A stretch of DNA of 64,000 bases from the NCBI RefSeq assembly GCF_001433855.1, contig NZ_AZCP01000003.1, positions 304,239 to 368,238 of the forward strand, written 5' to 3'. Below are positions 4,860 to 14,236 of the stretch, piece by piece; position 1 is the first letter of the stretch; each line of letters opens with the position of its first letter. The position numbers and the translations under genes were made by a program. The notes under the pieces were generated by a model. The model did no database searches. It was given only the letters and a program-made list of their open reading frames with translations, and was not told the origin of the DNA. This DNA is from Levilactobacillus brevis ATCC 14869 = DSM 20054. Lineage in GTDB: Bacteria; Bacillota; Bacilli; Lactobacillales; Lactobacillaceae.

Positions 4860-5492
4860 ATGAATGACCCGAGAATCTTACCCGCAACATTAACTGCGCA
4901 GAGCTTTTTAGCCATTACAGCTGATGAAGACCGGCAGCTACAAATGGCCCATGTACAACAGCAGACGATTGCAGACCAGTCGCTGGAGCATCCGTTGATT
5001 GATCAGTGTTTATTTGAAGGGACGACATTTATTAATGATAACTTCTATCGTGCAGAGTTAACTGATGTTATTTTTAAGAACTGTACATTGGTTAACTGTC
5101 AGTTGGAAGCGGCCAGCCTGTACCGAGTTCAACTGCAGAATTGTAAGTTGGTCGGGACCACCTTTGACCACGCGGTATTTAGAGACGTGGTCATCACGGA
5201 CTGTGATTTATCATTGGCCAATCTTAATGAGGTTAAGTTCACTAGCGTCAAGATAATAGCAAGTCGATTAGTAGAAGTTAATTGCCTCGACAGCGTGATG
5301 ATTAAGACTCAATTGACCCGCTGTGATTTGAATCAGGCCGATTTTTCTGGTACTGGGTTAAAGGCCCTTGATCTGAGTACGTGTGACTTTGATGAGTTAC
5401 GGCTAACGGCCAATGACTTGCGCGGGTGTCATTTAAATACCGAGCAGGCGGCGTATTTCGCGCAACAGCTTTTAGGGGTTCAGTTAGCGTGA
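4860..5492 (+). CDS. Pentapeptide-repeat protein
   Basis: 210 residues. From about residue 45 onward the sequence follows the A(D/N)LXX-type pentapeptide pattern (CLFEGTTFINDNFYRAELTDVIFKNCTLVNC, then LSLANLNEVKF and LNQADFSGTGLKALDLSTCDFDELRL), which folds as a right-handed square helix. The first 45 residues are non-repeat. Some relatives mimic DNA and protect gyrase, but most are uncharacterised; nothing here shows which. AAGGAGG lies 7 nt before the ATG. Its last codons overlap the convergent lacI-type gene by 9 bp. Confidence 0.85.
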   Translation: MNDPRILPATLTAQSFLAITADEDRQLQMAHVQQQTIADQSLEHPLIDQCLFEGTTFINDNFYRAELTDVIFKNCTLVNCQLEAASLYRVQLQNCKLVGTTFDHAVFRDVVITDCDLSLANLNEVKFTSVKIIASRLVEVNCLDSVMIKTQLTRCDLNQADFSGTGLKALDLSTCDFDELRLTANDLRGCHLNTEQAAYFAQQLLGVQLA

Positions 5493-6461
5493 AATGGTTG
5501 TGGCCGCGAGACGAATCTCTTCCGGGAGTAAGTCGGGGTCGTCAATCTTAGCTAACAGACGGTCGATGGCTGTTTGCCCCAGTTGTGCAATAGGTTGCCG
5601 CGCCGTGACAATTGGCTGGGGTAAGAAGTCAAACCAATCTTGATCGTCGAAGCCACCTAAATGAATGGGTGGGAGATCAAGCGCTGGAAGTTTACGTAAA
5701 ACTTCCTCCATGATGGTATTGTCGGCAACGAAGAGGCCATCGCATTTTTGATTAACCAGTAGCTGGCGGGTCATCTGTTGTACGTTACTATTGTCCGTTC
5801 GCGCCGTTGCCTCAATAGCAGCATCAGGCTCGAAGCCAGCCTGGGTTAGGGCTTCTCGGTAACCGGTCATGCGTTCCGTCGCTGTAAAGGAAACGGCGCT
5901 ATTGATGATTCCAATTCGTTGGGCGCCTTGATGAATAAGCTCAGTGACAACAGCCTGCGTGCCCTGGATATTGTCAACCAGCACGCGATCGTAAGCTAGT
6001 TGGCCAGTAACGGGCGGCATGCGATCAACAAAGACAGCTGGTGTGTTGCCCAAAATATCAGTGTACTTAGTGGGGCCACCAGCACTGGTGATGATAATAC
6101 CATCAACTTGTTTTTCTAGTAACAGACTGAGTGCGTTGGCCTCTTTGGCGAGACTCTCATCGGTGTTGACCAACACAACATCATAGCCGGCTTTATCTGC
6201 GGCGTCTTCAATGGCCCGACTGAGTTTAGTAAAGAATGCATTTAAAATATCTGGGATAATGACCCCAAGGGTATGGGTATGTTGGAGTCGAATGCTACGA
6301 GCAAGGCCGTTGGGGTGATAGCCTAAGTTATTCGCAATGTTTTGAATCTTTTGGCGCGTATCGCGTTTAACTCGTGGGCTGTGAGTCAGCGCGCGGGAAA
6401 CCGTTGCTTCGGACACCCCTGCAGCCTTAGCGACATCCTTAATCGTTACTTTTCCAGTCAT
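5484..6461 (-). CDS. LacI family transcriptional regulator
   Basis: 325 residues. The N-terminal LacI helix-turn-helix is complete (TIKDVAKAAGVSEATVSRALTHSPRVKRDTRQKI), with a hinge helix near NGLARSIR, followed by a periplasmic-binding-protein-like sugar sensor (HTLGVIIPDILNAFF, DGIIITSAG, FVDRMPP, GLFVADNTI, HLGGFDD). It normally represses a sugar operon in response to a sugar or through HPr/CcpA-like input, yet no sugar operon adjoins it: the neighbours are a pentapeptide gene and a tRNA. The effector and target are therefore unknown; an autoregulatory site is proposed at 6524-6535. Confidence 0.92.
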   Translation of the reverse strand: MTGKVTIKDVAKAAGVSEATVSRALTHSPRVKRDTRQKIQNIANNLGYHPNGLARSIRLQHTHTLGVIIPDILNAFFTKLSRAIEDAADKAGYDVVLVNTDESLAKEANALSLLLEKQVDGIIITSAGGPTKYTDILGNTPAVFVDRMPPVTGQLAYDRVLVDNIQGTQAVVTELIHQGAQRIGIINSAVSFTATERMTGYREALTQAGFEPDAAIEATARTDNSNVQQMTRQLLVNQKCDGLFVADNTIMEEVLRKLPALDLPPIHLGGFDDQDWFDFLPQPIVTARQPIAQLGQTAIDRLLAKIDDPDLLPEEIRLAATTISR

Positions 6462-6535: not shown

Positions 6536-6641
6536 GTGGACGCAAGCCAGATTCAACGATTTTTTTACAAAAGGTCTTGCGTTATCCCCTAATGTAATGC
6601 TAAAATTATTTCTTGTTGGGGGTCAGGTATTGACCACTTAT

Positions 6642-6713
6642 TGGGCTATAGCCAAGTGGTAAGGCAACGGGTTTTGATCCCGTGATGCGCTGGTTCGAAC
6701 CCAGCTAGCCCAA
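6642..6713 (+). tRNA. tRNA-Gln (anticodon UUG)
   Basis: Complete 72-nt cloverleaf: acceptor TGGGCTA/TAGCCCA, D arm GCCAAGTGGTAAGGC, anticodon stem ACGGG/CCCGT with loop TTTTGAT (anticodon TTG), T arm GCTGG TTCGAAC CCAGC and discriminator A. CCA is not encoded. Confidence 0.96.
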
Positions 6714-6730
6714 TTAGAGAAATTTATGGT

Positions 6731-6803: not shown

Positions 6804-6826
6804 ATGATAGGTATAGAGACTATCAT
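6804..6826. promoter_or_regulatory. Inverted repeat upstream of the HTH-PfkB gene
   Basis: ATGATAG and CTATCAT are separated by 9 bp, 26 bp before the GTG start. This may be the gene's own operator; it does not match the palindrome at 8149-8164. Confidence 0.35.
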
Positions 6827-6851: not shown

Positions 6852-7940
6852 GTGATCAGTAGAGAACAGCAAATCTTAGAGTGGATTAAGCAAAATCCAA
6901 TGATTTCACAAAACGAATTGGCCAAGTTAGCTGGTATTACCCGTTCTGGTGTGGCTGCGCATATTTCTAACCTAGTGAAAAAAGGCTATATTCAAGGGAA
7001 AGGCTATGTGATTACACCACCTAAATATGTGACGGTAATTGGTGGCGCCAATATGGATGTTTTTGGTGTTGCTAAAGAACCTATCAAAAATCAAAGTTCT
7101 TATCCAGGTAATATTTACTATAAGTTAGGTGGAGTTGGTCGCAATGCGGCTGTTAATTTGAGTAAGTTAGAACTAAAGACCTATTTAATTACAGCATTAG
7201 GTGATGATCGCAATGGCGAACGAATTAAAGAAGATGCTTTAAAAAATGGTGTTGATATTAGTCATTCAACGCAAGTTAGTCAAGCTGCAACGTCGACCTA
7301 TATGTATGTGAATCAACCCAATGGAGATCGTATTGTCGGAATTGATGATATGGCGATTAATAGTTATCTATCGCCGGAGTATCTTATGCAACAGGAACAA
7401 GTCATTAATAATTCCGACTTAATTATCATTGATTCTAATTTGCCTAAGCGTAGCATTAAGTGGCTTTATAATAATGTGCAAGTGCCGATATTTGCGAAAG
7501 CCGTTGGTCGTAATAAGATGATGAATCTTTATGATGGCATGAATCGGTTGGATACGTTGGTCATCAATGCAGTTGAAGCAACCGTGCTGACAAAAGTAAC
7601 GATTACTGACGAACAAACAGCACGTATGGCAGCGGAACGATTGCTGGAACGTAGTGTCCAGAACGTTTTTATTTATATCGATGAAGTGGGTATTCTTTAT
7701 CAAAGCCAGACGCAAGCCTACTTTTTTCAAGATGATGAAAAGATTCCTCGTAATACGAATGGTGCAGGTGCTGCTGCGATTGCGGGCCTAGCTTGGGCGC
7801 GGGTGAATCATCAAGATTTTTTGGAGACGGCTAAGTTTGGTGTGGCGGCGGCTTATATTACCACCGAATCATATGATGCAGTTAATCAAACAATGGCTTT
7901 GGCTAAGCTAACTGAGCGACAACAACAAATTTCAGATTAG
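6852..7940 (+). CDS. Winged-helix + PfkB-like protein lacking the catalytic Asp; probable operon regulator
   Basis: 362 residues. Residues 1-55 form a winged-helix DNA-binding domain (ILEWIKQNPMISQNELAKLAGITRSGVAAHISNLVKKGYI). The rest is a PfkB (ribokinase-like) domain starting VTVIGGANMDVFG. In active enzymes the motif is GAGD; here it is NGAGA (Ala at residue 307), so the base that activates the sugar hydroxyl is absent. The downstream paralogue at 8198 keeps NGAGD. I infer that this is a sugar- or nucleoside-sensing transcription factor rather than a kinase. The start is GTG; the nearby ATG at 6848 runs straight into a stop. It has its own terminator, so it is transcribed apart from the operon that follows. 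Confidence 0.82.
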   Translation: MISREQQILEWIKQNPMISQNELAKLAGITRSGVAAHISNLVKKGYIQGKGYVITPPKYVTVIGGANMDVFGVAKEPIKNQSSYPGNIYYKLGGVGRNAAVNLSKLELKTYLITALGDDRNGERIKEDALKNGVDISHSTQVSQAATSTYMYVNQPNGDRIVGIDDMAINSYLSPEYLMQQEQVINNSDLIIIDSNLPKRSIKWLYNNVQVPIFAKAVGRNKMMNLYDGMNRLDTLVINAVEATVLTKVTITDEQTARMAAERLLERSVQNVFIYIDEVGILYQSQTQAYFFQDDEKIPRNTNGAGAAAIAGLAWARVNHQDFLETAKFGVAAAYITTESYDAVNQTMALAKLTERQQQISD

Positions 7941-7944
7941 TCGC

Positions 7945-7981
7945 TTAAAAAATGGTATTTCCGAAAGGAGATGCCATTTTT
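7945..7981 (+). terminator. Terminator of the HTH-PfkB gene
   Basis: AAAAAATGGTATTTCC pairs with GGAGATGCCATTTTTT, immediately after the stop. Confidence 0.7.
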
Positions 7982-8095
7982 TTGTTTTGTGAAAGTCAGA
8001 GATTATATGGCTGTTAAATACTGAACAATAGGTGATACCGGCAGATTTAAAAATGAGCAAACTCCAAGTACTTTTGAAAGCGGATACATTTGGTG

Positions 8096-8125
8096 TTGAC
8101 AAACCCTACCTAATGATTATATTAT
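8096..8125 (+). promoter_or_regulatory. Promoter of the 8.2-14.2 kb nucleoside operon
   Basis: A consensus -35 box TTGACA (8096-8101) is followed by TATATT (16-bp spacing) or TATTAT (18-bp spacing) at 8118-8125. Confidence 0.6.
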
Positions 8126-8148
8126 CTAAGTGTCAAATGACTATACGA

Positions 8149-8164
8149 ATAAACAATTGTTTAT
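8149..8164. promoter_or_regulatory. Perfect 16-bp palindrome, candidate operator
   Basis: ATAAACAATTGTTTAT lies just downstream of the promoter and 34 bp before the first operon gene. Its position suits repression of the operon, most simply by the winged-helix PfkB-like protein encoded next door. Confidence 0.5.
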
Positions 8165-8197
8165 AAATTGCTTTTAACTAAACGGGAGGCAATCTAC

Positions 8198-9154
8198 ATG
8201 AACAGTCAGAAGTTACAAAGTGAAACGGGTTATGTAGTTGTGGTTGGCGGAATGAATATGGATATTTTCGGAATGCCAGACAGAAAGGTAATTGAACGTG
8301 ATTCCAATATTGGCGAGATTGGCATGGCCGTTGGTGGTGTAGGTCAAAACATTGCGCAAAACTTAGCACATCTTGAGGTACCAACCTACCTCGTCACCGT
8401 TTATGGCGATGATTATAACGGGGCTTTGTTGCAACAGTCTTGTGCAGAGAACCATATCTCATTAGATCAGGCACATGAGATCAAAGGAGGTCGGTCCTCA
8501 ACCTACATGTACATCACTGATGAGCATGGTGACATGCTAGTGGGTGTGAATGACATGGCGATTTGCGAACAGATTACGCCGGAATTCTTAGCGACTAAGT
8601 TAGACTTCATTAATCACGCTGATATTTGTTTGATTGATGCCAATATTTCCCAGCAAGCCATTGATTGGCTTGGCAGTCATGTAACGGTTCCATTATTTGG
8701 AGATACCGTATCAGTGACCAAGGCGCACCACTTCGAGCACATTTTAAATAAGCTGCATACGTTAAAGCCCAATGCGTTAGAAGCATCACTGCTGAGTGGC
8801 GTGAAAGTTACGGATACACAATCTGCTGAGGCAGCAGCGGCTGTCTTGTTGGATAAGGGTGTGCAAAACGTTTTTATTTCATTGGGAGCAGATGGTATTC
8901 TGTGTGCCAACCAGCGTGGAATGGTCCACGTGCCGATTCTAAAAACCGATATTGTTAATGCCAATGGTGCTGGTGACTGTGGTATGGCAGCAATTACTTG
9001 GAGTTACTTTACGAATCCGGAACGTGAGCTACAGGCGACTGGGCAAATTGCTCAAGCAGCCTCTAGCATTGCATTAGAAAGTACAAAGTCGGTGCCAGAT
9101 ATTACCCCGCATCAAGTTAGCCAAAAATTAGAAGCACTCACAATTTTAAATTAA
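8198..9154 (+). CDS. PfkB family carbohydrate/nucleoside kinase
   Basis: 318 residues, ribokinase fold, with substrate segment VVVVGGMNMDIFG, the GGVGQNIAQNLAHL loop and the intact catalytic anion-hole motif NANGAGDCGMAA (Asp near residue 260). It is closest in the window to the upstream HTH-linked protein but has no DNA-binding domain. Candidates for its substrate are ribose, a nucleoside or pseudouridine; the operon context (NupC, nucleoside hydrolase) favours a ribose- or nucleoside-type sugar. GGGAGG lies 7 nt before the ATG at 8198. First gene of a tightly spaced operon. Confidence 0.82.
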   Translation: MNSQKLQSETGYVVVVGGMNMDIFGMPDRKVIERDSNIGEIGMAVGGVGQNIAQNLAHLEVPTYLVTVYGDDYNGALLQQSCAENHISLDQAHEIKGGRSSTYMYITDEHGDMLVGVNDMAICEQITPEFLATKLDFINHADICLIDANISQQAIDWLGSHVTVPLFGDTVSVTKAHHFEHILNKLHTLKPNALEASLLSGVKVTDTQSAEAAAAVLLDKGVQNVFISLGADGILCANQRGMVHVPILKTDIVNANGAGDCGMAAITWSYFTNPERELQATGQIAQAASSIALESTKSVPDITPHQVSQKLEALTILN

Positions 9155-9170
9155 GAAGGAGCGATTTTTT

Positions 9171-9863
9171 ATGATTAAGCAAATTTATTCTTTAATTCAA
9201 TATGACGAAGCTGTTAAGACGATGGCGGCCGGTGCCGACAACATCGGATTAGTACCGATGCAACACGGTGGCGTTCCTGCTCATCGGGTACCGTTGGATC
9301 GCGTCCACAAAATCTTCGATGAAGCCAAGCGCCGTGGCGTGACCTCCGTTGCCATTATGTTGACGAATGATCCCCAAGAGATGATTGACATTGCTGAAAA
9401 GGTTCAGCCAGATATTTTGCATATTGCCGGAGATGGTTATGCTGCTGATGCCGAATTTGCTAAGCGGCTAAAGGCAGTGGCACCACATACAGAACTCATG
9501 CAGGCCGTGTTAGTGGACAATGAAAGTGCCATTGATCGGGCTAAACACTTTGAAGATTTTGTTGACTATATTCTCTTAGATTCTGGCTTGGCGCATGATA
9601 CCGGTATTGGTGCTAGCGGAGAAACCCATGATTGGAACATTGATGCCAAGATTGTCCAGGAAGTTAAGGTACCGGTGATTGAAGCTGGTGGTTTAGGACC
9701 TGATAATGTTGCGGCCGCAATTGAAAAGATTCGACCATACGGGGTTGATTCGTTGACTAAGACGAGCATCAAGTATGAGGGCGGTAATATGGAGAAAGAT
9801 ATTGATAAGGTTAAGGCCTTTTGTCAAAATGCAGATGCTGCAGCTGAAAAGTTAGGATTATAA
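9171..9863 (+). CDS. TrpF-like (phosphoribosylanthranilate isomerase family) TIM-barrel protein with altered active site
   Basis: 230 residues with a beta/alpha-barrel pattern and TrpF-like landmarks: AGADNIGLVP early, DILHIAGDGY in the middle, DYILLDSG with the acid Asp137, HDWNIDAKIV, and AGGLGPDNVAAAIEKIRPYGVDSL near the C-terminus. True TrpF has KICG at the N-terminus, with Cys as general base; here it is KQIYSL (Tyr6), and the usual GVDVSSGVE reads GVDSLTKTS. No tryptophan genes are nearby. I infer a different isomerisation or aldolase-type step on a phosphosugar released from a nucleoside. It may be annotated as TrpF by homology; I do not support that function. Confidence 0.7.
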   Translation: MIKQIYSLIQYDEAVKTMAAGADNIGLVPMQHGGVPAHRVPLDRVHKIFDEAKRRGVTSVAIMLTNDPQEMIDIAEKVQPDILHIAGDGYAADAEFAKRLKAVAPHTELMQAVLVDNESAIDRAKHFEDFVDYILLDSGLAHDTGIGASGETHDWNIDAKIVQEVKVPVIEAGGLGPDNVAAAIEKIRPYGVDSLTKTSIKYEGGNMEKDIDKVKAFCQNADAAAEKLGL

Positions 9864-9882
9864 ATATTAGGAGGGCGGTGAA

Positions 9883-10509
9883 ATGTCAGCAAGGTATACA
9901 CCGAAGACCATCGCATTAGCGCTTCTTGGTATTTTCCTAGTTTGCATGGGAGTGGCTTTTAATAGCAATACGCAGCTTGGTAATGACCCGGTGGGCATTA
10001 TTTATGATGGTTTGCGAACGACATTTCACTTAGAACAAGCACAGTTGGGGACCGTTTCGAACTATTTGAATGTTGTTTTGATTATCGGATTATTCTTCAT
10101 GGGTCGTCATTATGCCAGTTGGGGAACCCTGATGTATCTCGTTCCTTATGGGGTATTTGTCTCAATCGGGTCGGCTCTATATCCCATGATTTTTACATCA
10201 ACGACGTTACTTGGTCGATCGTTAGGCGGCTTGGTCGGTATTTCCTTATATTACTTAGGAATTAGTTTGTTTGTAGCGGCCGACATTGGTGTGGACCCAT
10301 TCAGCGGGTTCATGTTGACGTTGCGGGATAAGACCGGTTGGAGCATGCGCCGTAGCAAAATAACATTTGATGGCGCTCTGATCATCATGGGCGTTTTATT
10401 GGGCGGTAAGTTTGGCATTATTACGATTTTAACGGCCTTAACGACGGGACCAACGATTCAGGCATTAAGTAGTATTTTTCGTAAGCACCTTATCTTGAGA
10501 CAAAATTAA
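9883..10509 (+). CDS. YczE/YitT-like integral membrane protein
   Basis: 208 residues with about five to six hydrophobic spans, starting ALALLGIFLVCMGVAFNSNTQLGNDPVGIIYDGL and repeating an internal similar unit at ISLYYLGISLFVAADIGVDPFSGFMLTLRD, so it looks like a two-fold duplicated membrane fold. This is typical of YczE/YyaS/YitT-type proteins. A transport role is plausible but unproven; in this operon it could export or import a pathway intermediate. AGGAGGG precedes the ATG. Confidence 0.7.
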   Translation: MSARYTPKTIALALLGIFLVCMGVAFNSNTQLGNDPVGIIYDGLRTTFHLEQAQLGTVSNYLNVVLIIGLFFMGRHYASWGTLMYLVPYGVFVSIGSALYPMIFTSTTLLGRSLGGLVGISLYYLGISLFVAADIGVDPFSGFMLTLRDKTGWSMRRSKITFDGALIIMGVLLGGKFGIITILTALTTGPTIQALSSIFRKHLILRQN

Positions 10510-10522
10510 GGAGGAATTGCAG

Positions 10523-11683
10523 ATGGATGTAAAGTTACTGCAGCGCGTTAAGGTGTTAGACACCGATCACTTGGCGCAGACTGTTTTAGAGGTTCTCCAA
10601 ACAGAAGGGTATCAACGTCCACTGTTTGTTATGGATAGTTTTCTGGCACAGGTCCCATTGGTGCAGGAAACTCAGGCTTTATTGGAGAAAAGTGGGATAA
10701 CTGTTAGCGTGTTTGATCAGGTAGTATCAGATCCACCGGCACAAACAATTCGAGACGGTGTAACGGCATTTGGGGCCGCCCATGCTGATAGTTTAATTGC
10801 AATTGGTGGGGGGAGTTCAATTGATGTCGCCCGCGGTATTAATATTGTTCGGGTTAATGGTGGCGATATTTTAGACTATACCGATACGCAAAAGTCGATT
10901 GAACCATGTCCGGGATTAATTGCTATTCCAACAACCTCAGGGACTGGTAGTGAGCTTTCTAATGCATTGGTTGTGACGGACGTGGCAACTGAGAAAAAGG
11001 TAGCGATTTTAGCGGATAACGCCGTTAGTGAATATGCTATATTAAATCCAGATTTACTCTTATCTTTACCTAAAAAAATGACCATTGCCACTGGGTTAGA
11101 TGCATTTTCTCATGCGGCCGAAGGTTATACGTCCCGGCTAGCAAGTCCTGTAACGGACGCGATTTGCGAAAAGGTGATGTTTTTACTTTATAATTATCTG
11201 CCGCGAGCAGTGGAAAATGGTCACGATCGGGAGGCCCGCCAACGTGTCATGGTAGCGGCTGCCTTAGCCGGGTGGATGCTTAATAATGCTGGGACGAATG
11301 CAGGACATTCAATAGCCCATATCTTAGGATCTAAGTATCATCTGGTTCATGGCGAAGCCGTTGCGTATGCTTTGCCAGGGGTTCTTGAACAAGTTGCCCC
11401 ACTCTTACCCCATAAGGTAGCTGAAATTGGTCAAATCTTAGGTGTGGCGTACGCTCCAACAGATACCTTATCAGAGCGGTGTAATCAAGCCATTAAGGCG
11501 TACCAACACTTTCGAGATGATTTAGTCGGCTTGCATCCATTTAACGATTATGGGATTTCTGAAGAAGAACTAGTGACGAATGCTGAGGCTGTTGCAAATG
11601 AACAATTTGCAGGAAACACACCTGGAGAGATGAACAAGCAAGTCGCCACAAAGTTATTAACACGATTTGGTTGTCGGGCTTAA
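10523..11683 (+). CDS. Iron-containing (group III) alcohol dehydrogenase
   Basis: 386 residues. NAD-binding GGGSSIDVARGI at about residue 95, the TSGTGSE loop, and metal ligands in TGLDAFSHAAEGY and in GHSIAHILGSKYHLVHGEA are all present, so it should be catalytically active. Group III enzymes reduce aldehydes or oxidise alcohols and some act on phosphosugars. Here it sits between a TrpF-like enzyme and a nucleoside transporter, so a sugar- or aldehyde-intermediate substrate is likely. The ATG at 10523 follows AAGGAGG by 8 nt; the upstream TTG at 10517 is too close. Confidence 0.88.
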   Translation: MDVKLLQRVKVLDTDHLAQTVLEVLQTEGYQRPLFVMDSFLAQVPLVQETQALLEKSGITVSVFDQVVSDPPAQTIRDGVTAFGAAHADSLIAIGGGSSIDVARGINIVRVNGGDILDYTDTQKSIEPCPGLIAIPTTSGTGSELSNALVVTDVATEKKVAILADNAVSEYAILNPDLLLSLPKKMTIATGLDAFSHAAEGYTSRLASPVTDAICEKVMFLLYNYLPRAVENGHDREARQRVMVAAALAGWMLNNAGTNAGHSIAHILGSKYHLVHGEAVAYALPGVLEQVAPLLPHKVAEIGQILGVAYAPTDTLSERCNQAIKAYQHFRDDLVGLHPFNDYGISEEELVTNAEAVANEQFAGNTPGEMNKQVATKLLTRFGCRA

Positions 11684-11707
11684 TCAAAACGAAAAAGGGT
11701 GAACGTC

Positions 11708-12892
11708 ATGAATTTTGTTTTTCTGTTAACAGGATTAGCATTGGTTTTTGGCATCAGTTGGCTGATTAGTACAGACCGTAAGCATATTAAATATAAACGA
11801 ATGGGAATTTTATTTGGTCTGCAGTTGGTAATTTCCTTTCTATGTTTACATACGTCTGGTGGGGTTAAGACTTTAGCAGGCATCTCTAGCTTTTTTAATT
11901 GGTTAATGGTTCAAGCGGCTGGCGGTGTTAATTTTGTCTTTGGTGGATTCAGCATTAAAGCCGGTTCTTCCGTTTTCTTTCTAAACGTATTGATGCCGAT
12001 TGTCTTCATCTCGGCGTTAGTTGGTATTTTGAATTACATTAAGGTGCTACCGTTTATTATTAAGTGGACTGGCTGGGCACTAAATAAAGTTGCGGGTATG
12101 GGAGAATTAGAAAGTTATTTTGCTGTATCGACCGCTATTTTGGGACAACCAGAAGTTTTCTTAACCGTTAAGGATCAAATTCCCAAGTTAAATGAACGGC
12201 GTCTGTATACCATCTGTGCGTCGGCAATGAGTGCCGTCTCCGCTGCCATGTTGGCCTCATATATGAAGATGGTTCCCGGAAAGTTTGTCGTGGTTGCGGT
12301 TTTCTTGAATATCTTATCGGCGTTGATCATTTCTTGTGTGGTCAACCCTTATGAAACAGAAGCGAATGATGAGTTGGTTCAAGTATCCAAGAAGAAACAA
12401 GAACCATTTTTCCAAGTTTTGGGAACCTACATTACGGACGGCTTTAGTTTAGCGATTACCGTAGGCGCAATGTTGATTGGTTTTGTGGCACTGGTAACCT
12501 TCTTGAATAGCTCATTTATTGCTTTGATTCATATTTCCTTTACGGATTTGATTGGTTATGTTTTTGCGCCAGTAGCCTTTTTGATGGGCGTGCCAGCGCA
12601 TGAAGCGATGAAAGTCGGCAGTCTGATGGCAACAAAATTGATTACTAATGAATTTGTGGCGATGGGAACTTTGCATGGCATGGCCGCTGGGTTAAGTGCA
12701 AAAGCCAATGCCATTATTTCCGCTTACCTGGTTTCCTTTGCCAACTTTGGGACGGTTGGGATTATTACCGGTTCAATCAAATCTATTAGCGCAGAACAAG
12801 GTGGTTACGTGGCTAAGTTCTCAATGAAGTTATTGTTGGGTGCGACGTTAGCATCAGTATTGACTGGAACCATCGTGGGGATGTATTTCTAG
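11708..12892 (+). CDS. nupC: NupC-type concentrative nucleoside transporter (CNT family)
   Basis: 394 residues, with about nine or more membrane segments. CNT signatures include VFGISWLISTDRKHIKYKR at the N-terminus, the KAGSSVFFLNVLMPIVFISALVGILNY gate region, GQPEVFLTVKDQIPKLNERRLYTICASAMSAVSAAMLASYMKM and GVPAHEAMKVGSLMATKLITNEFVAM. It imports nucleosides with H+ or Na+. The GTG at 11699 lies in the ribosome site AAGGGTG, so ATG 11708 is preferred. It supplies the substrate for the nucleoside hydrolase encoded at the operon end. Confidence 0.93.
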   Translation: MNFVFLLTGLALVFGISWLISTDRKHIKYKRMGILFGLQLVISFLCLHTSGGVKTLAGISSFFNWLMVQAAGGVNFVFGGFSIKAGSSVFFLNVLMPIVFISALVGILNYIKVLPFIIKWTGWALNKVAGMGELESYFAVSTAILGQPEVFLTVKDQIPKLNERRLYTICASAMSAVSAAMLASYMKMVPGKFVVVAVFLNILSALIISCVVNPYETEANDELVQVSKKKQEPFFQVLGTYITDGFSLAITVGAMLIGFVALVTFLNSSFIALIHISFTDLIGYVFAPVAFLMGVPAHEAMKVGSLMATKLITNEFVAMGTLHGMAAGLSAKANAIISAYLVSFANFGTVGIITGSIKSISAEQGGYVAKFSMKLLLGATLASVLTGTIVGMYF

Positions 12893-12903
12893 GAGGGATT
12901 AAA

Positions 12904-13287
12904 GTGAAACGGCAATGGATCAGATTAATCGAATTAGTTGTCGGCTCATGGCTGTTGTTTTCCTTGGGAACCCTGGTTAGTGTGCAGACGGGAACACCGA
13001 GCGTCAATTGGCGCCCCACATTTAATACCCTATTATTTGCATTAATGTTGTATGCTTGGAGTATCTTCATTGTTTATCAGCAGCGACGATTTGCAAGCGC
13101 TTTAATGGGCTTTGTCATTGTGGTCTATAGTTGTGGCTTTCTTAGCCTAATGATTACTGCCATCAAACAATTTGCTATAGTCAGTCGTTTTTCAAGTTTA
13201 GTTATCATCATAAGTTTGGTTGGACTGTTCGTTAATGGGCTTTGGTTCAAGACCGGTCGCCAGCTGAATAAACAACAATCTAGTTAA
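12904..13287 (+). CDS. Small four-TM membrane protein, unknown function
   Basis: 127 residues with four predicted membrane helices ([75 protein letters not shown]) and a basic C-terminal tail. No family recognised. GTG start with AGGAGGG 6 nt upstream. It lies between transporter and hydrolase with gaps of 11 and 16 bp, so it is a true operon member and may be an accessory to NupC. Confidence 0.75.
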
Positions 13288-13303
13288 GATAGGAGTCTCA
13301 CTC

Positions 13304-14236
13304 ATGAAAAAAATAATTCTCGATTGTGATCCCGGCCACGACGATGCTTTGGCAATGATGCTGGCATTGGCTAGTCCGGATATTGACCTACTGGCTGTTA
13401 CGACATCAGCGGGGAATCAAACACCAGAAAAGACTCTGAATAACGCGATGCGACTGCTGACACTGATGCAACATCAAGAGATTCCAGTGGCGGGTGGTAA
13501 TCGAACACCATTGTTAAAACCATTGGAAACGGCTGGTAATGTCCATGGTAAGAGTGGCCTTGATGGTGCTGAGTTACCAGAGCCTGACTTTGCCGTTCAA
13601 CCCGTACCAGCTGTCGAATTGATGGCACAAACATTGCGGGCTAGTGCAGAGCCCGTTACCTTTGTGGTGACGGGTCCCATGACCAATATGGCTCTATTCT
13701 TACGGGTTCATCCCGAACTGACTGATAAAATTGAGCGGATTGTCTTTATGGGCGGCGCGATGGGGCTAGGTAACTGGACGCCTTCTGTGGAATTTAACAT
13801 TTACGTTGATCCAGAAGCTGCCAAAATCGTGTTGAATGCCGGCATTCCGTTGACGATGGCCCCATTGAATGTGACCCATCAAGCACAGATTCTCAAACCC
13901 GAAATTGAGGCGATTGGTGATATTAACAATCCAGTTGCCCACGCCTTTTACGGGCTTCTGAATTTCTTTGAACGGTACCATGAAGCACCTAAATGGGGCT
14001 TTAAGGGCGCGCCATTACATGATCCTTGTACGATTGCGTGGCTCTTACATCCAGAAATGTTCCACAGTGAACTGATGAACGTTGATGTTGAAACGCAAGG
14101 AGAACTGGTTCGGGGCGAAACGGTTTGTGATTATTATGAACTGACTGGAAAGCCTAAGAATACCGATGTTCTCTTGGATATTGACCGTGATGCCTTTATT
14201 CGGTTGATTACGGATTCTTTAAAAACCTTTAACTAG
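13304..14236 (+). CDS. Ribonucleoside hydrolase (IunH/Rih family)
   Basis: 310 residues. The calcium-binding DCDPGHDDA motif is at the N-terminus, the substrate strand [15 protein letters not shown] is in the middle, and the catalytic-site HDP motif (His239) is present. It hydrolyses the N-glycosidic bond of nucleosides to ribose and base in the cytoplasm. It is the last gene of the operon and is followed by a terminator. Base preference cannot be read from sequence. Confidence 0.93.

What the first reader, a model, noticed from the sequence alone, without database searches (positions are those of the whole stretch)
6852..14236. Nucleoside operon with a kinase-dead regulator and an off-pattern enzyme set
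NupC import and an intact nucleoside hydrolase frame a set not explained by standard nucleoside use: an active PfkB kinase, a TrpF-like barrel without its catalytic Cys, an iron alcohol dehydrogenase, a YczE-like membrane protein and a small four-TM protein, all with close spacing behind one promoter. Simple ribose release needs only a ribokinase. The extra isomerase-like and dehydrogenase genes suggest a further route for the sugar (or a modified nucleoside), possibly with reduction of an aldehyde. I know of no described pathway with exactly this gene order.
Basis: partly seen in the sequence, partly recalled or inferred. Interest (0 to 1): 0.7.

Follow-up and report, generated by a model that had tools for sequence, protein, structure and literature searches.

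The report
Pseudouridine operon with replaced splitting enzyme
A bacterial gene set first read as a ribose pathway looks instead like a way of using pseudouridine, a common modified RNA building block, in which the known splitting enzyme is missing and an unrelated barrel protein plus an alcohol dehydrogenase stand in its place, which points to a breakdown route that has not been described.

Summary
The operon's PfkB kinase keeps all 13 sites taken from the E. coli pseudouridine kinase PsuK (11 contact residues, one loop Ser, the catalytic Asp). So do 46 of 49 kinases called beside related barrels; six other PfkBs of this genome keep 2-6. Its nearest relatives in other families of the phylum (12 of 12 genomes) lie directly beside the pseudouridine-5'-phosphate glycosidase PsuG. 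Here that place is held by the TrpF-like barrel, and the genome has no PsuG. The kinase-dead HTH-PfkB regulator belongs to the same PsuK clade; the catalytic Asp is lost in 37 of 37. An Fe-alcohol dehydrogenase accompanies the barrel in 39 of 46 loci and PsuG in 0 of 20 at the same cut-offs. Best reading: pseudouridine is phosphorylated, cleaved by the barrel instead of PsuG, and an aldehyde product is reduced by the dehydrogenase. My favoured chemistry, a retro-aldol giving glyceraldehyde-3-phosphate and uracil-5-acetaldehyde, is inference (about 0.35). Against certainty: distant barrels with the same active-site residues pair with other kinases and nucleoside hydrolases, and no enzyme was assayed. 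New variant of pseudouridine catabolism.

The parts
6852..7940 (+). HTH-PfkB regulator, kinase-dead; keeps 11 of the 12 non-catalytic PsuK sites, Asp256 position is Ala
7947..7982 (+). terminator-like hairpin after the regulator gene
   Evidence: consensus match only
8096..8125 (+). promoter-like site of the seven-gene operon, TTGACA-18-TATTAT
   Evidence: consensus match only
8149..8164 (.). palindrome ATAAACAATTGTTTAT, proposed operator of HTH-PfkB; just downstream of the promoter-like site
8198..9154 (+). PfkB kinase, predicted pseudouridine kinase (PsuK type, 13 of 13 sites)
9171..9863 (+). TrpF-like barrel in the position that PsuG has beside related kinases; proposed pseudouridine-5'-phosphate lyase/aldolase
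9883..10509 (+). YczE-like membrane protein; near 21 of 46 loci, none of 20 PsuG loci; role unknown
10517..11683 (+). Fe-dependent alcohol dehydrogenase, proposed reductase of the aldehyde product
11699..12892 (+). NupC-family nucleoside transporter; 28% identical to both E. coli PsuT and NupX
12904..13287 (+). small protein without family hit; recognisable in 7 of 46 loci
13304..14236 (+). RihA-type pyrimidine ribonucleoside hydrolase, likely for ordinary uridine/cytidine; near 25 of 46 loci

Best explanation
This is a pseudouridine-utilisation operon in which PsuG is replaced by a TrpF-like barrel working with an Fe-alcohol dehydrogenase. Steps: (1) a NupC-type carrier brings in nucleosides (inferred from family). 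(2) The PsuK-type PfkB phosphorylates pseudouridine at O5' to pseudouridine-5'-phosphate (inferred from conserved contact residues, clade and PsuG-linked relatives; not assayed). (3) The barrel binds this sugar 5-phosphate and opens the ribose ring as TrpF does with its N-linked substrate, the uracil acting as electron sink; most likely it then breaks C2'-C3' by a vinylogous retro-aldol, giving glyceraldehyde-3-phosphate for glycolysis and 5-(2-hydroxyvinyl)uracil, the enol of uracil-5-acetaldehyde (inference from chemistry only, about 0.35). (4) The Fe-ADH reduces that aldehyde to 5-(2-hydroxyethyl)uracil, reoxidising NADH (inference). (5) RihA handles ordinary pyrimidine nucleosides arriving with pseudouridine from RNA (inference). 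(6) The HTH-PfkB protein, a PsuK-like kinase that has lost its catalytic Asp, senses pseudouridine and acts at ATAAACAnnTGTTTAT before the kinase gene (inference). The confidence given is for the core claim: a pseudouridine operon in which the barrel acts on pseudouridine-5'-phosphate in place of PsuG.
For: Kinase: 13 of 13 PsuK sites (sites from PMC9247573, passages); 46 of 49 PfkB rows beside related barrels are full, the 3 others being only 19-29% alike; 17 of 20 PsuG-linked kinases full, 3 with 12; six other PfkBs of this genome 2-6, E. coli RbsK 5, FruK 4. Best solved match is E. coli PsuK, 1.6e-51, ribokinases at 9e-16 or worse. Neighbourhood: in 398 genomes of the phylum the kinase finds, at E<=1e-45 and outside its own genome, 12 genomes, and in 12 of 12 PsuG lies directly beside it; 20 of 20 PsuG loci read have such a kinase and 0 of 20 the barrel. 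Clade: the kinases and the dead regulators are sister groups (100/98) within a PsuK/PsuG-linked group (97/95) apart from RbsK, FruK and the other kinases. Dead regulator: catalytic Asp lost in 37 of 37, 9-12 of 12 other sites kept. Blautia locus L103: an HTH-fused, catalytically intact PsuK-type kinase directly before the barrel, the same two-gene plan as HTH-PfkB/PsuG, with a 2-mismatch operator-like site at -49. Fe-ADH near 39 of 46 barrel loci, 0 of 20 PsuG loci at the same cut-offs (1 of 20 at 22% identity with laxer ones; Fisher on 39/46 vs 1/20, 6.5e-10). Barrel: AF2 pLDDT 94.9; Gln4, Tyr6, His84 and Asp137 lie on strands 1, 4 and 6, by TrpF homology at the active-site end; nearest folds TrpF, with TrpA and a hexulose-phosphate synthase, C-C cleaving enzymes (activities recalled), further down. 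No PsuG in this genome.
Against: No enzyme data. The barrel's active-site residues are shared with distant barrels (Gln4, His84, Asp137, Asp154, Thr198 in 64 of 64; His153 in 63) whose kinases score only 3-6 of 13 (22 rows) and which often lie by nucleoside hydrolases and Bmp-type transporters, so the barrel's chemistry may not be special to pseudouridine. Fe-ADH is not near 7 of 46 loci, L103 among them, nor near any of the 31 distant-barrel loci L090-L120; several of the 7 are on short contigs. Lack of PsuG says little inside Lactobacillaceae, where 0 of 201 genomes have it. A RihA-like hydrolase is near 25 of 46 loci, which a pseudouridine route does not need. The Fe-ADH's nearest characterised kin act on small aldehydes or alcohols. 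NupC is as close to NupX as to PsuT.
Confidence: 0.72

Rival explanations
1. Same operon, simpler chemistry: the barrel is a non-homologous PsuG, splitting pseudouridine-5'-phosphate to uracil and ribose-5-phosphate; the Fe-ADH serves some other purpose. (A sub-case of the core claim.)
For: It stands exactly where PsuG stands, including the two-gene plan of L103, which lacks a nearby Fe-ADH.
Against: PsuG works through an iminium at Lys166 (PMC7722734, passages); no Lys of the barrel is invariant on one of the eight barrel strands (K197, just after strand 8, is K 33/R 2 in the near clade; K209 is invariant but off the barrel strands and aligned to a Lys of TrpF; K201 is invariant only in the near clade). 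PsuG hydrolysis is unfavourable (8.9e-5 M in that paper). It leaves the Fe-ADH linkage unexplained (39/46 vs 0/20).
Confidence: 0.25
2. One reading: RihA frees ribose, PfkB makes ribose-5-phosphate, and the barrel isomerises or cleaves that (for instance to glyceraldehyde-3-phosphate and glycolaldehyde, reduced by the Fe-ADH to ethylene glycol).
For: Hydrolase near 25 of 46 loci and again with distant barrels, including Halostella; the Fe-ADH is of the small-aldehyde type; a haloarchaeal nucleoside pathway ending in ethylene glycol is published (PMC9700705, passages).
Against: The kinase has the PsuK base-contact residues and groups with PsuG-linked kinases, not with RbsK. 21 of 46 loci have no RihA-like gene within 6 kb.
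Confidence: 0.1
3. The barrel does TrpF-type isomerisation only, giving 1-deoxy-1-(uracil-5-yl)-ribulose-5-phosphate, which the Fe-ADH or an unlinked aldolase takes further.
For: TrpF fold and the Asp aligned with its general acid are kept.
Against: The Cys aligned with TrpF's base is Tyr (Phe in 3 of 64); no further carbon-releasing enzyme is linked.
Confidence: 0.12
4. The operon serves another pyrimidine C- or N-nucleoside (for example N1-methylpseudouridine or a nucleoside antibiotic) that the PsuK-type pocket also takes.
For: PMC9247573 reports weak E. coli PsuK activity on other nucleosides (passages); distant barrels lie in Corynebacterium and Agrobacterium clusters with upp, an adenylation-domain enzyme and PsuG.
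Against: The pocket is identical to PsuK at every site tested, and pseudouridine is the common natural ligand.
Confidence: 0.08

Closest known systems
E. coli psuTGK (pseudouridine transporter, PsuG, PsuK)
   Same: PsuK-type kinase with identical ligand sites (35.6% identity); CNT-family transporter; enzyme for the nucleotide next to the kinase
   Different: No PsuG; TrpF-like barrel and Fe-ADH instead; extra RihA, YczE-like and small protein; separate dead HTH-PfkB regulator
HTH-PfkB/PsuG gene pairs of Bacillota (14 of the 20 PsuG loci read)
   Same: Same HTH-PfkB family; operator-like site before the kinase gene in the better cases
   Different: There one protein is both regulator and intact kinase (G-x-G-D in 20 of 20 kinases read); here the roles are split between a dead regulator and a separate kinase, and PsuG is gone
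TrpF, phosphoribosylanthranilate isomerase
   Same: Fold (Foldseek 4.9e-16), GG and Asp-Ser phosphate-side region, Asp aligned with the general acid
   Different: Cys base replaced by Tyr, about 24% identity, new invariant Gln4, His84, His153; no IGPS in this genome
Tryptophan synthase alpha subunit and hexulose-6-phosphate synthase
   Same: Same barrel type and (recalled) aldol-type C-C chemistry on sugar-phosphate skeletons; both among the fold matches
   Different: Distant in sequence (16% and 22%); not members of the same family
Non-carboxylating pentose bisphosphate pathway of haloarchaea (PMC9700705)
   Same: Nucleoside sugar cut to a triose phosphate and a small aldehyde that is reduced to an alcohol
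   Different: Other enzymes throughout, and other nucleosides

Membership tests
PsuK pseudouridine kinase (for 8198-9154) | Ligand residues N14 D16 G41 V42 N45 Y97 M114 N143 V166 S167 K170, loop S30, catalytic D256 | tested here: met
   13 of 13; controls 2-6 of 13
PsuK pseudouridine kinase (for 8198-9154) | Clusters with PsuG-linked kinases, apart from ribokinase | tested here: met
   (97/95)
PsuK pseudouridine kinase (for 8198-9154) | NCBIfam PsuK equivalog score | tested here: not met
   199 bits against a cut-off of 540: a relative, not an equivalog by NCBI's standard
PsuK pseudouridine kinase (for 8198-9154) | Phosphorylates pseudouridine | not testable with these tools
   needs an assay
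Ribokinase RbsK (for 8198-9154) | Groups with RbsK / meets ribokinase cut-off | tested here: not met
   103.5 bits vs 299.65
PsuG (PF04227) | Indigoidine_A domain in the genome | tested here: not met
   0 hits in this genome
TrpF (for 9171-9863) | PRAI fold and Pfam domain | tested here: met
   48.4 bits vs 22.7
TrpF (for 9171-9863) | Catalytic Cys (role recalled) | tested here: not met
   Tyr6 in its place
TrpF (for 9171-9863) | Tryptophan-pathway setting | tested here: not met
   no IGPS (PF00218) in this genome; pseudouridine-kinase neighbourhood
RihA (for 13304-14236) | NCBIfam RihA cut-off | tested here: met
   517.7 vs 433
YczE (for 9883-10509) | NCBIfam YczE cut-off | tested here: not met
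   68.3 vs 205
Fe-ADH, FucO/ErcA-like (for 10517-11683) | Fe-ADH domains and metal-ligand motifs (roles recalled) | tested here: met
   Pfam over cut-off; GLDAFSHA 193, AHILG 267, LVHGE 276; no NCBIfam equivalog cut-off reached

The most novel reading that the evidence does not exclude
A second, PsuG-free route of pseudouridine breakdown: a TrpF-fold enzyme cuts the ribose of pseudouridine-5'-phosphate by a vinylogous retro-aldol, with the uracil itself as electron sink, releasing glyceraldehyde-3-phosphate and uracil-5-acetaldehyde, which an Fe-ADH reduces to 5-(2-hydroxyethyl)uracil. The C-glycosidic bond is never broken, an unfavourable equilibrium is avoided, and the cell gains a triose phosphate and a sink for NADH.
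Probability: 0.33. Interest if true: 0.86.

Novelty: new variant of a known kind. Interest (0 to 1): 0.72.

Why it matters
PsuK/PsuG is the one pseudouridine breakdown route described in the papers I saw (passages of PMC9247573 and PMC7722734). Pseudouridine is among the most abundant RNA modifications, and lactobacilli and bifidobacteria of food and gut lack PsuG in the genomes tested (0 of 201 Lactobacillaceae). If right, this names their enzymes, gives TrpF-like proteins annotated as phosphoribosylanthranilate isomerase a different job, and predicts a new kind of C-nucleotide cleavage and an excreted uracil derivative that can be looked for by mass spectrometry. It also offers a clear case of a kinase gene doubling into an enzyme and a kinase-dead sensor.

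Tried and rejected
Ribose-only reading: set back by the kinase residues and tree. Deoxyribose/acetaldehyde reading: considered because of the Fe-ADH; the genome has a DeoC-family gene of its own, and the kinase is not of that type; not pursued. TrpF in tryptophan synthesis: rejected (no IGPS; Cys lost). Operator genome-wide: with up to one mismatch the pattern occurs 52 times in 15 genomes against 46 for the reversed control, so only its position before the kinase gene carries weight; in this genome it occurs once (control 2). The pattern was also drawn from these loci, and the 22 of 35 figure (best site matched by at most 2% of shuffles) is to that extent circular; of 14 HTH-fused PsuG-linked kinases only 4 have a site with at most 2 mismatches, though as a set they beat the 6 stand-alone ones (Mann-Whitney 3.4e-4; base composition not controlled). 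The '46 of 46' HTHPfkB count is an artefact (that query also hits the kinase gene) and is not used. PDB look-up by VIA-align was not available. What the distant barrels (L090-L120, rhizobia, Halostella) act on was not solved. Paper searches listed no paper that joins a TrpF-like protein or an alcohol dehydrogenase to pseudouridine breakdown; only open-licence PMC papers were searched.


Full report
What is there. The window lies in a 2.47-Mb Lactobacillaceae genome, probably Levilactobacillus: two genomes of its own genus have the contig lengths of L. lindianensis and L. paucivorans. The finding's genes were confirmed by ORFs, Pfam and NCBIfam. One correction: the HTH-PfkB gene ends in a terminator-like hairpin and is parted by 257 nt, with a promoter-like site, from a seven-gene operon PfkB, TrpF-like, YczE-like, Fe-ADH, NupC, small protein, RihA.

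Conservation. In 201 Lactobacillaceae genomes the TrpF-like gene is in 13, over 7 of 40 genera. A scan of genome contigs found 206 relatives and kept the best 80. 48 of them (L041-L088, 56-93% identical, by position in the list) carry the operon or its core; the shared core is HTH-PfkB, PfkB, TrpF-like and Fe-ADH, while NupC, YczE-like and RihA come and go. Among the 46 loci with a full-signature kinase, Fe-ADH is within 6 kb in 39, a RihA-like gene in 25, YczE-like in 21, NupC in 19. In five named families outside Lactobacillaceae the core stands without NupC or RihA, for instance Streptococcus catagoni, Vagococcus fluvialis and Alkalibacterium.

The kinase is of PsuK type. Passages of PMC9247573 name the E. 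coli PsuK residues that touch pseudouridine: Asn14, Asp16, Gly41, Val42, Asn45, Tyr97, Met114, Asn143, Val166, Ser167, Lys170, and catalytic Asp256; Ser30 matches a loop Thr of the Arabidopsis enzyme. The operon kinase has all 13, among them the base contacts Asn149, Ser172 and Lys175 (window numbering). Of 49 kinases called beside related barrels 46 have all 13; the three others are 19-29% alike. Controls: 17 of 20 PsuG-linked kinases full and 3 with 12; six other PfkB proteins of this genome 2-6; E. coli RbsK 5, FruK 4, YeiI 12; 22 kinases of the distant barrel branch 3-6. In an 80-row tree the kinases and dead regulators of this operon type form one group (99/95) within the PsuK/PsuG-linked group (97/95), away from RbsK, FruK and the distant branch's kinases; the root is by midpoint and some outgroup branches are long. 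The NCBIfam PsuK equivalog cut-off is not reached (199 of 540 bits).

The barrel stands in PsuG's place. A search of 398 genomes of the phylum with this kinase at E<=1e-45 gives, besides its own genome, 12 genomes (33-37% identity). In all 12 the PsuG coordinates lie within about 130 nt of the kinase. I read 20 PsuG loci (of 86 PsuG-positive genomes): 20 of 20 have a PsuK/YeiI-type kinase adjacent, none the barrel, YczE-like, NupC-type or RihA gene by BLAST. PsuG is missing from this genome and from 31 of 31 genomes behind near-clade loci. That absence is weak evidence within Lactobacillaceae, where none of 201 genomes has PsuG, and moderate elsewhere (86 of 398 in the phylum).

Regulator. The HTH-PfkB protein keeps 11 of the 12 non-catalytic sites but has Ala for the catalytic Asp; over the window and 36 loci the position is Ala 29, Ser 6, Gly 1, Thr 1 and never Asp. 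PsuG-linked kinases, 14 of 20 of them HTH-fused by length, all keep the motif. With the tree this suggests a doubling of an HTH-kinase into a sensor and an enzyme. The Blautia locus L103 fits the state before the doubling: an HTH-fused intact kinase followed directly by a barrel, as HTH-PfkB is followed by PsuG elsewhere. Its barrel belongs to the distant branch, so the pairing of barrel and PsuK-type kinase needs at least two changes on the barrel tree.

Operator. ATAAACAATTGTTTAT at 8149-8164 is exact in the window; related sites lie before the kinase gene in many loci, exact in Levilactobacillus, Mobilisporobacter, Vagococcus and a Eubacterium assembly. 22 of 35 sequences have a best site matched by at most 2% of shuffles. 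HTH-fused PsuG-linked kinases have closer sites (1-4 mismatches, n=14) than stand-alone ones (4-6, n=6). Limits are told under Tried and rejected; genome-wide the one-mismatch pattern is not enriched (52 vs 46).

Fe-ADH points to a different product. At equal cut-offs Fe-ADH is near 39 of 46 barrel loci and 0 of 20 PsuG loci. Uracil and ribose-5-phosphate, the PsuG products, would need no alcohol dehydrogenase. So the barrel probably makes an aldehyde.

The barrel's chemistry. AlphaFold2 gives a confident barrel (pLDDT 94.9, lowest in the loop at 141-150). The closest folds are TrpF structures. The TrpF Cys is replaced by Tyr6, the Asp is kept as Asp137; Gln4, His84, Asp137, Thr152, Asp154, Trp155 and Thr198 are invariant in 64 sequences and His153 in 63. 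PsuG acts through a Lys166 iminium, and its last synthetic step is an oxa-Michael ring closure, which implies a ring-opened unsaturated intermediate; the hydrolysis constant is 8.9e-5 M (PMC7722734, passages). The barrel has no invariant Lys on its eight strands. TrpF opens the ribose ring of an N-linked substrate (recalled). Doing the same with the C-linked uracil gives that intermediate; breaking C2'-C3' from there yields glyceraldehyde-3-phosphate and the enol of uracil-5-acetaldehyde. This explains the Fe-ADH, needs no Lys and uses up the lost Cys; but it is an argument from chemistry, not a result.

What does not fit. Distant barrels with the same key residues pair with other kinases, nucleoside hydrolases and Bmp transporters, or in rhizobia with an aminotransferase and sugar ABC genes. 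They have no Fe-ADH nearby (0 of 31). Either they work on another nucleotide in the same manner, or the barrel's reaction is more general than I propose. RihA in 25 of 46 loci is taken as handling ordinary pyrimidine nucleosides.

Novelty. Ten paper searches listed nothing that joins a TrpF-like protein or an alcohol dehydrogenase to pseudouridine breakdown. The reading is a new variant of pseudouridine catabolism; if the retro-aldol holds, a new pathway.

Noticed in passing
L112:216-10149, L113, L119 (Lachnospiraceae); L026 (Halostella plasmid): Distant TrpF-like barrels beside another PfkB kinase, one or two nucleoside hydrolases and a Bmp/ABC nucleoside transporter, in bacteria and a haloarchaeon: an unassigned nucleoside-use cluster.
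   Followed up: partly
L103:8848-10663: Blautia assembly: HTH-PfkB with intact catalytic Asp directly followed by the barrel, a two-gene analogue of HTH-PfkB/PsuG.
   Followed up: partly
L022, L024, L025 (Sinorhizobium, Ensifer, Shinella plasmids): A 39-40% barrel beside an RpiR regulator, sugar ABC transporter, aminotransferase and carbohydrate kinase.
   Followed up: no
L027, L029 (Agrobacterium vitis, Corynebacterium aurimucosum plasmids): Still more distant TrpF-like proteins in clusters with upp, an adenylation-domain enzyme, a tautomerase and PsuG, resembling C-nucleoside/indigoidine clusters.
   Followed up: partly
L098, L115, L116 (Erysipelotrichaceae): A transketolase half is called near the barrel in these loci, with an aminotransferase in L116.
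   Followed up: no
L023:9001-10829 (Limosilactobacillus mucosae plasmid): Barrel gene on a small plasmid with the Fe-ADH annotated in two pieces and a replication gene upstream; looks like a decaying copy.
   Followed up: no
window 6641-6714: tRNA-Gln (TTG) between the LacI-family gene and the HTH-PfkB gene.
   Followed up: yes
window 5484-6461: LacI-family regulator, divergent and upstream; a relative keeps this place in 5 of 46 loci.
   Followed up: no
window 6804-6826: Inverted repeat ATGATAG-9-CTATCAT just before the HTH-PfkB start; unlike the operator before the kinase.
   Followed up: no
L087:8991-11342: In a Lachnospiraceae assembly a uridine-kinase-family gene follows kinase and barrel, with a Bmp-type transporter set after it.
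   Followed up: no
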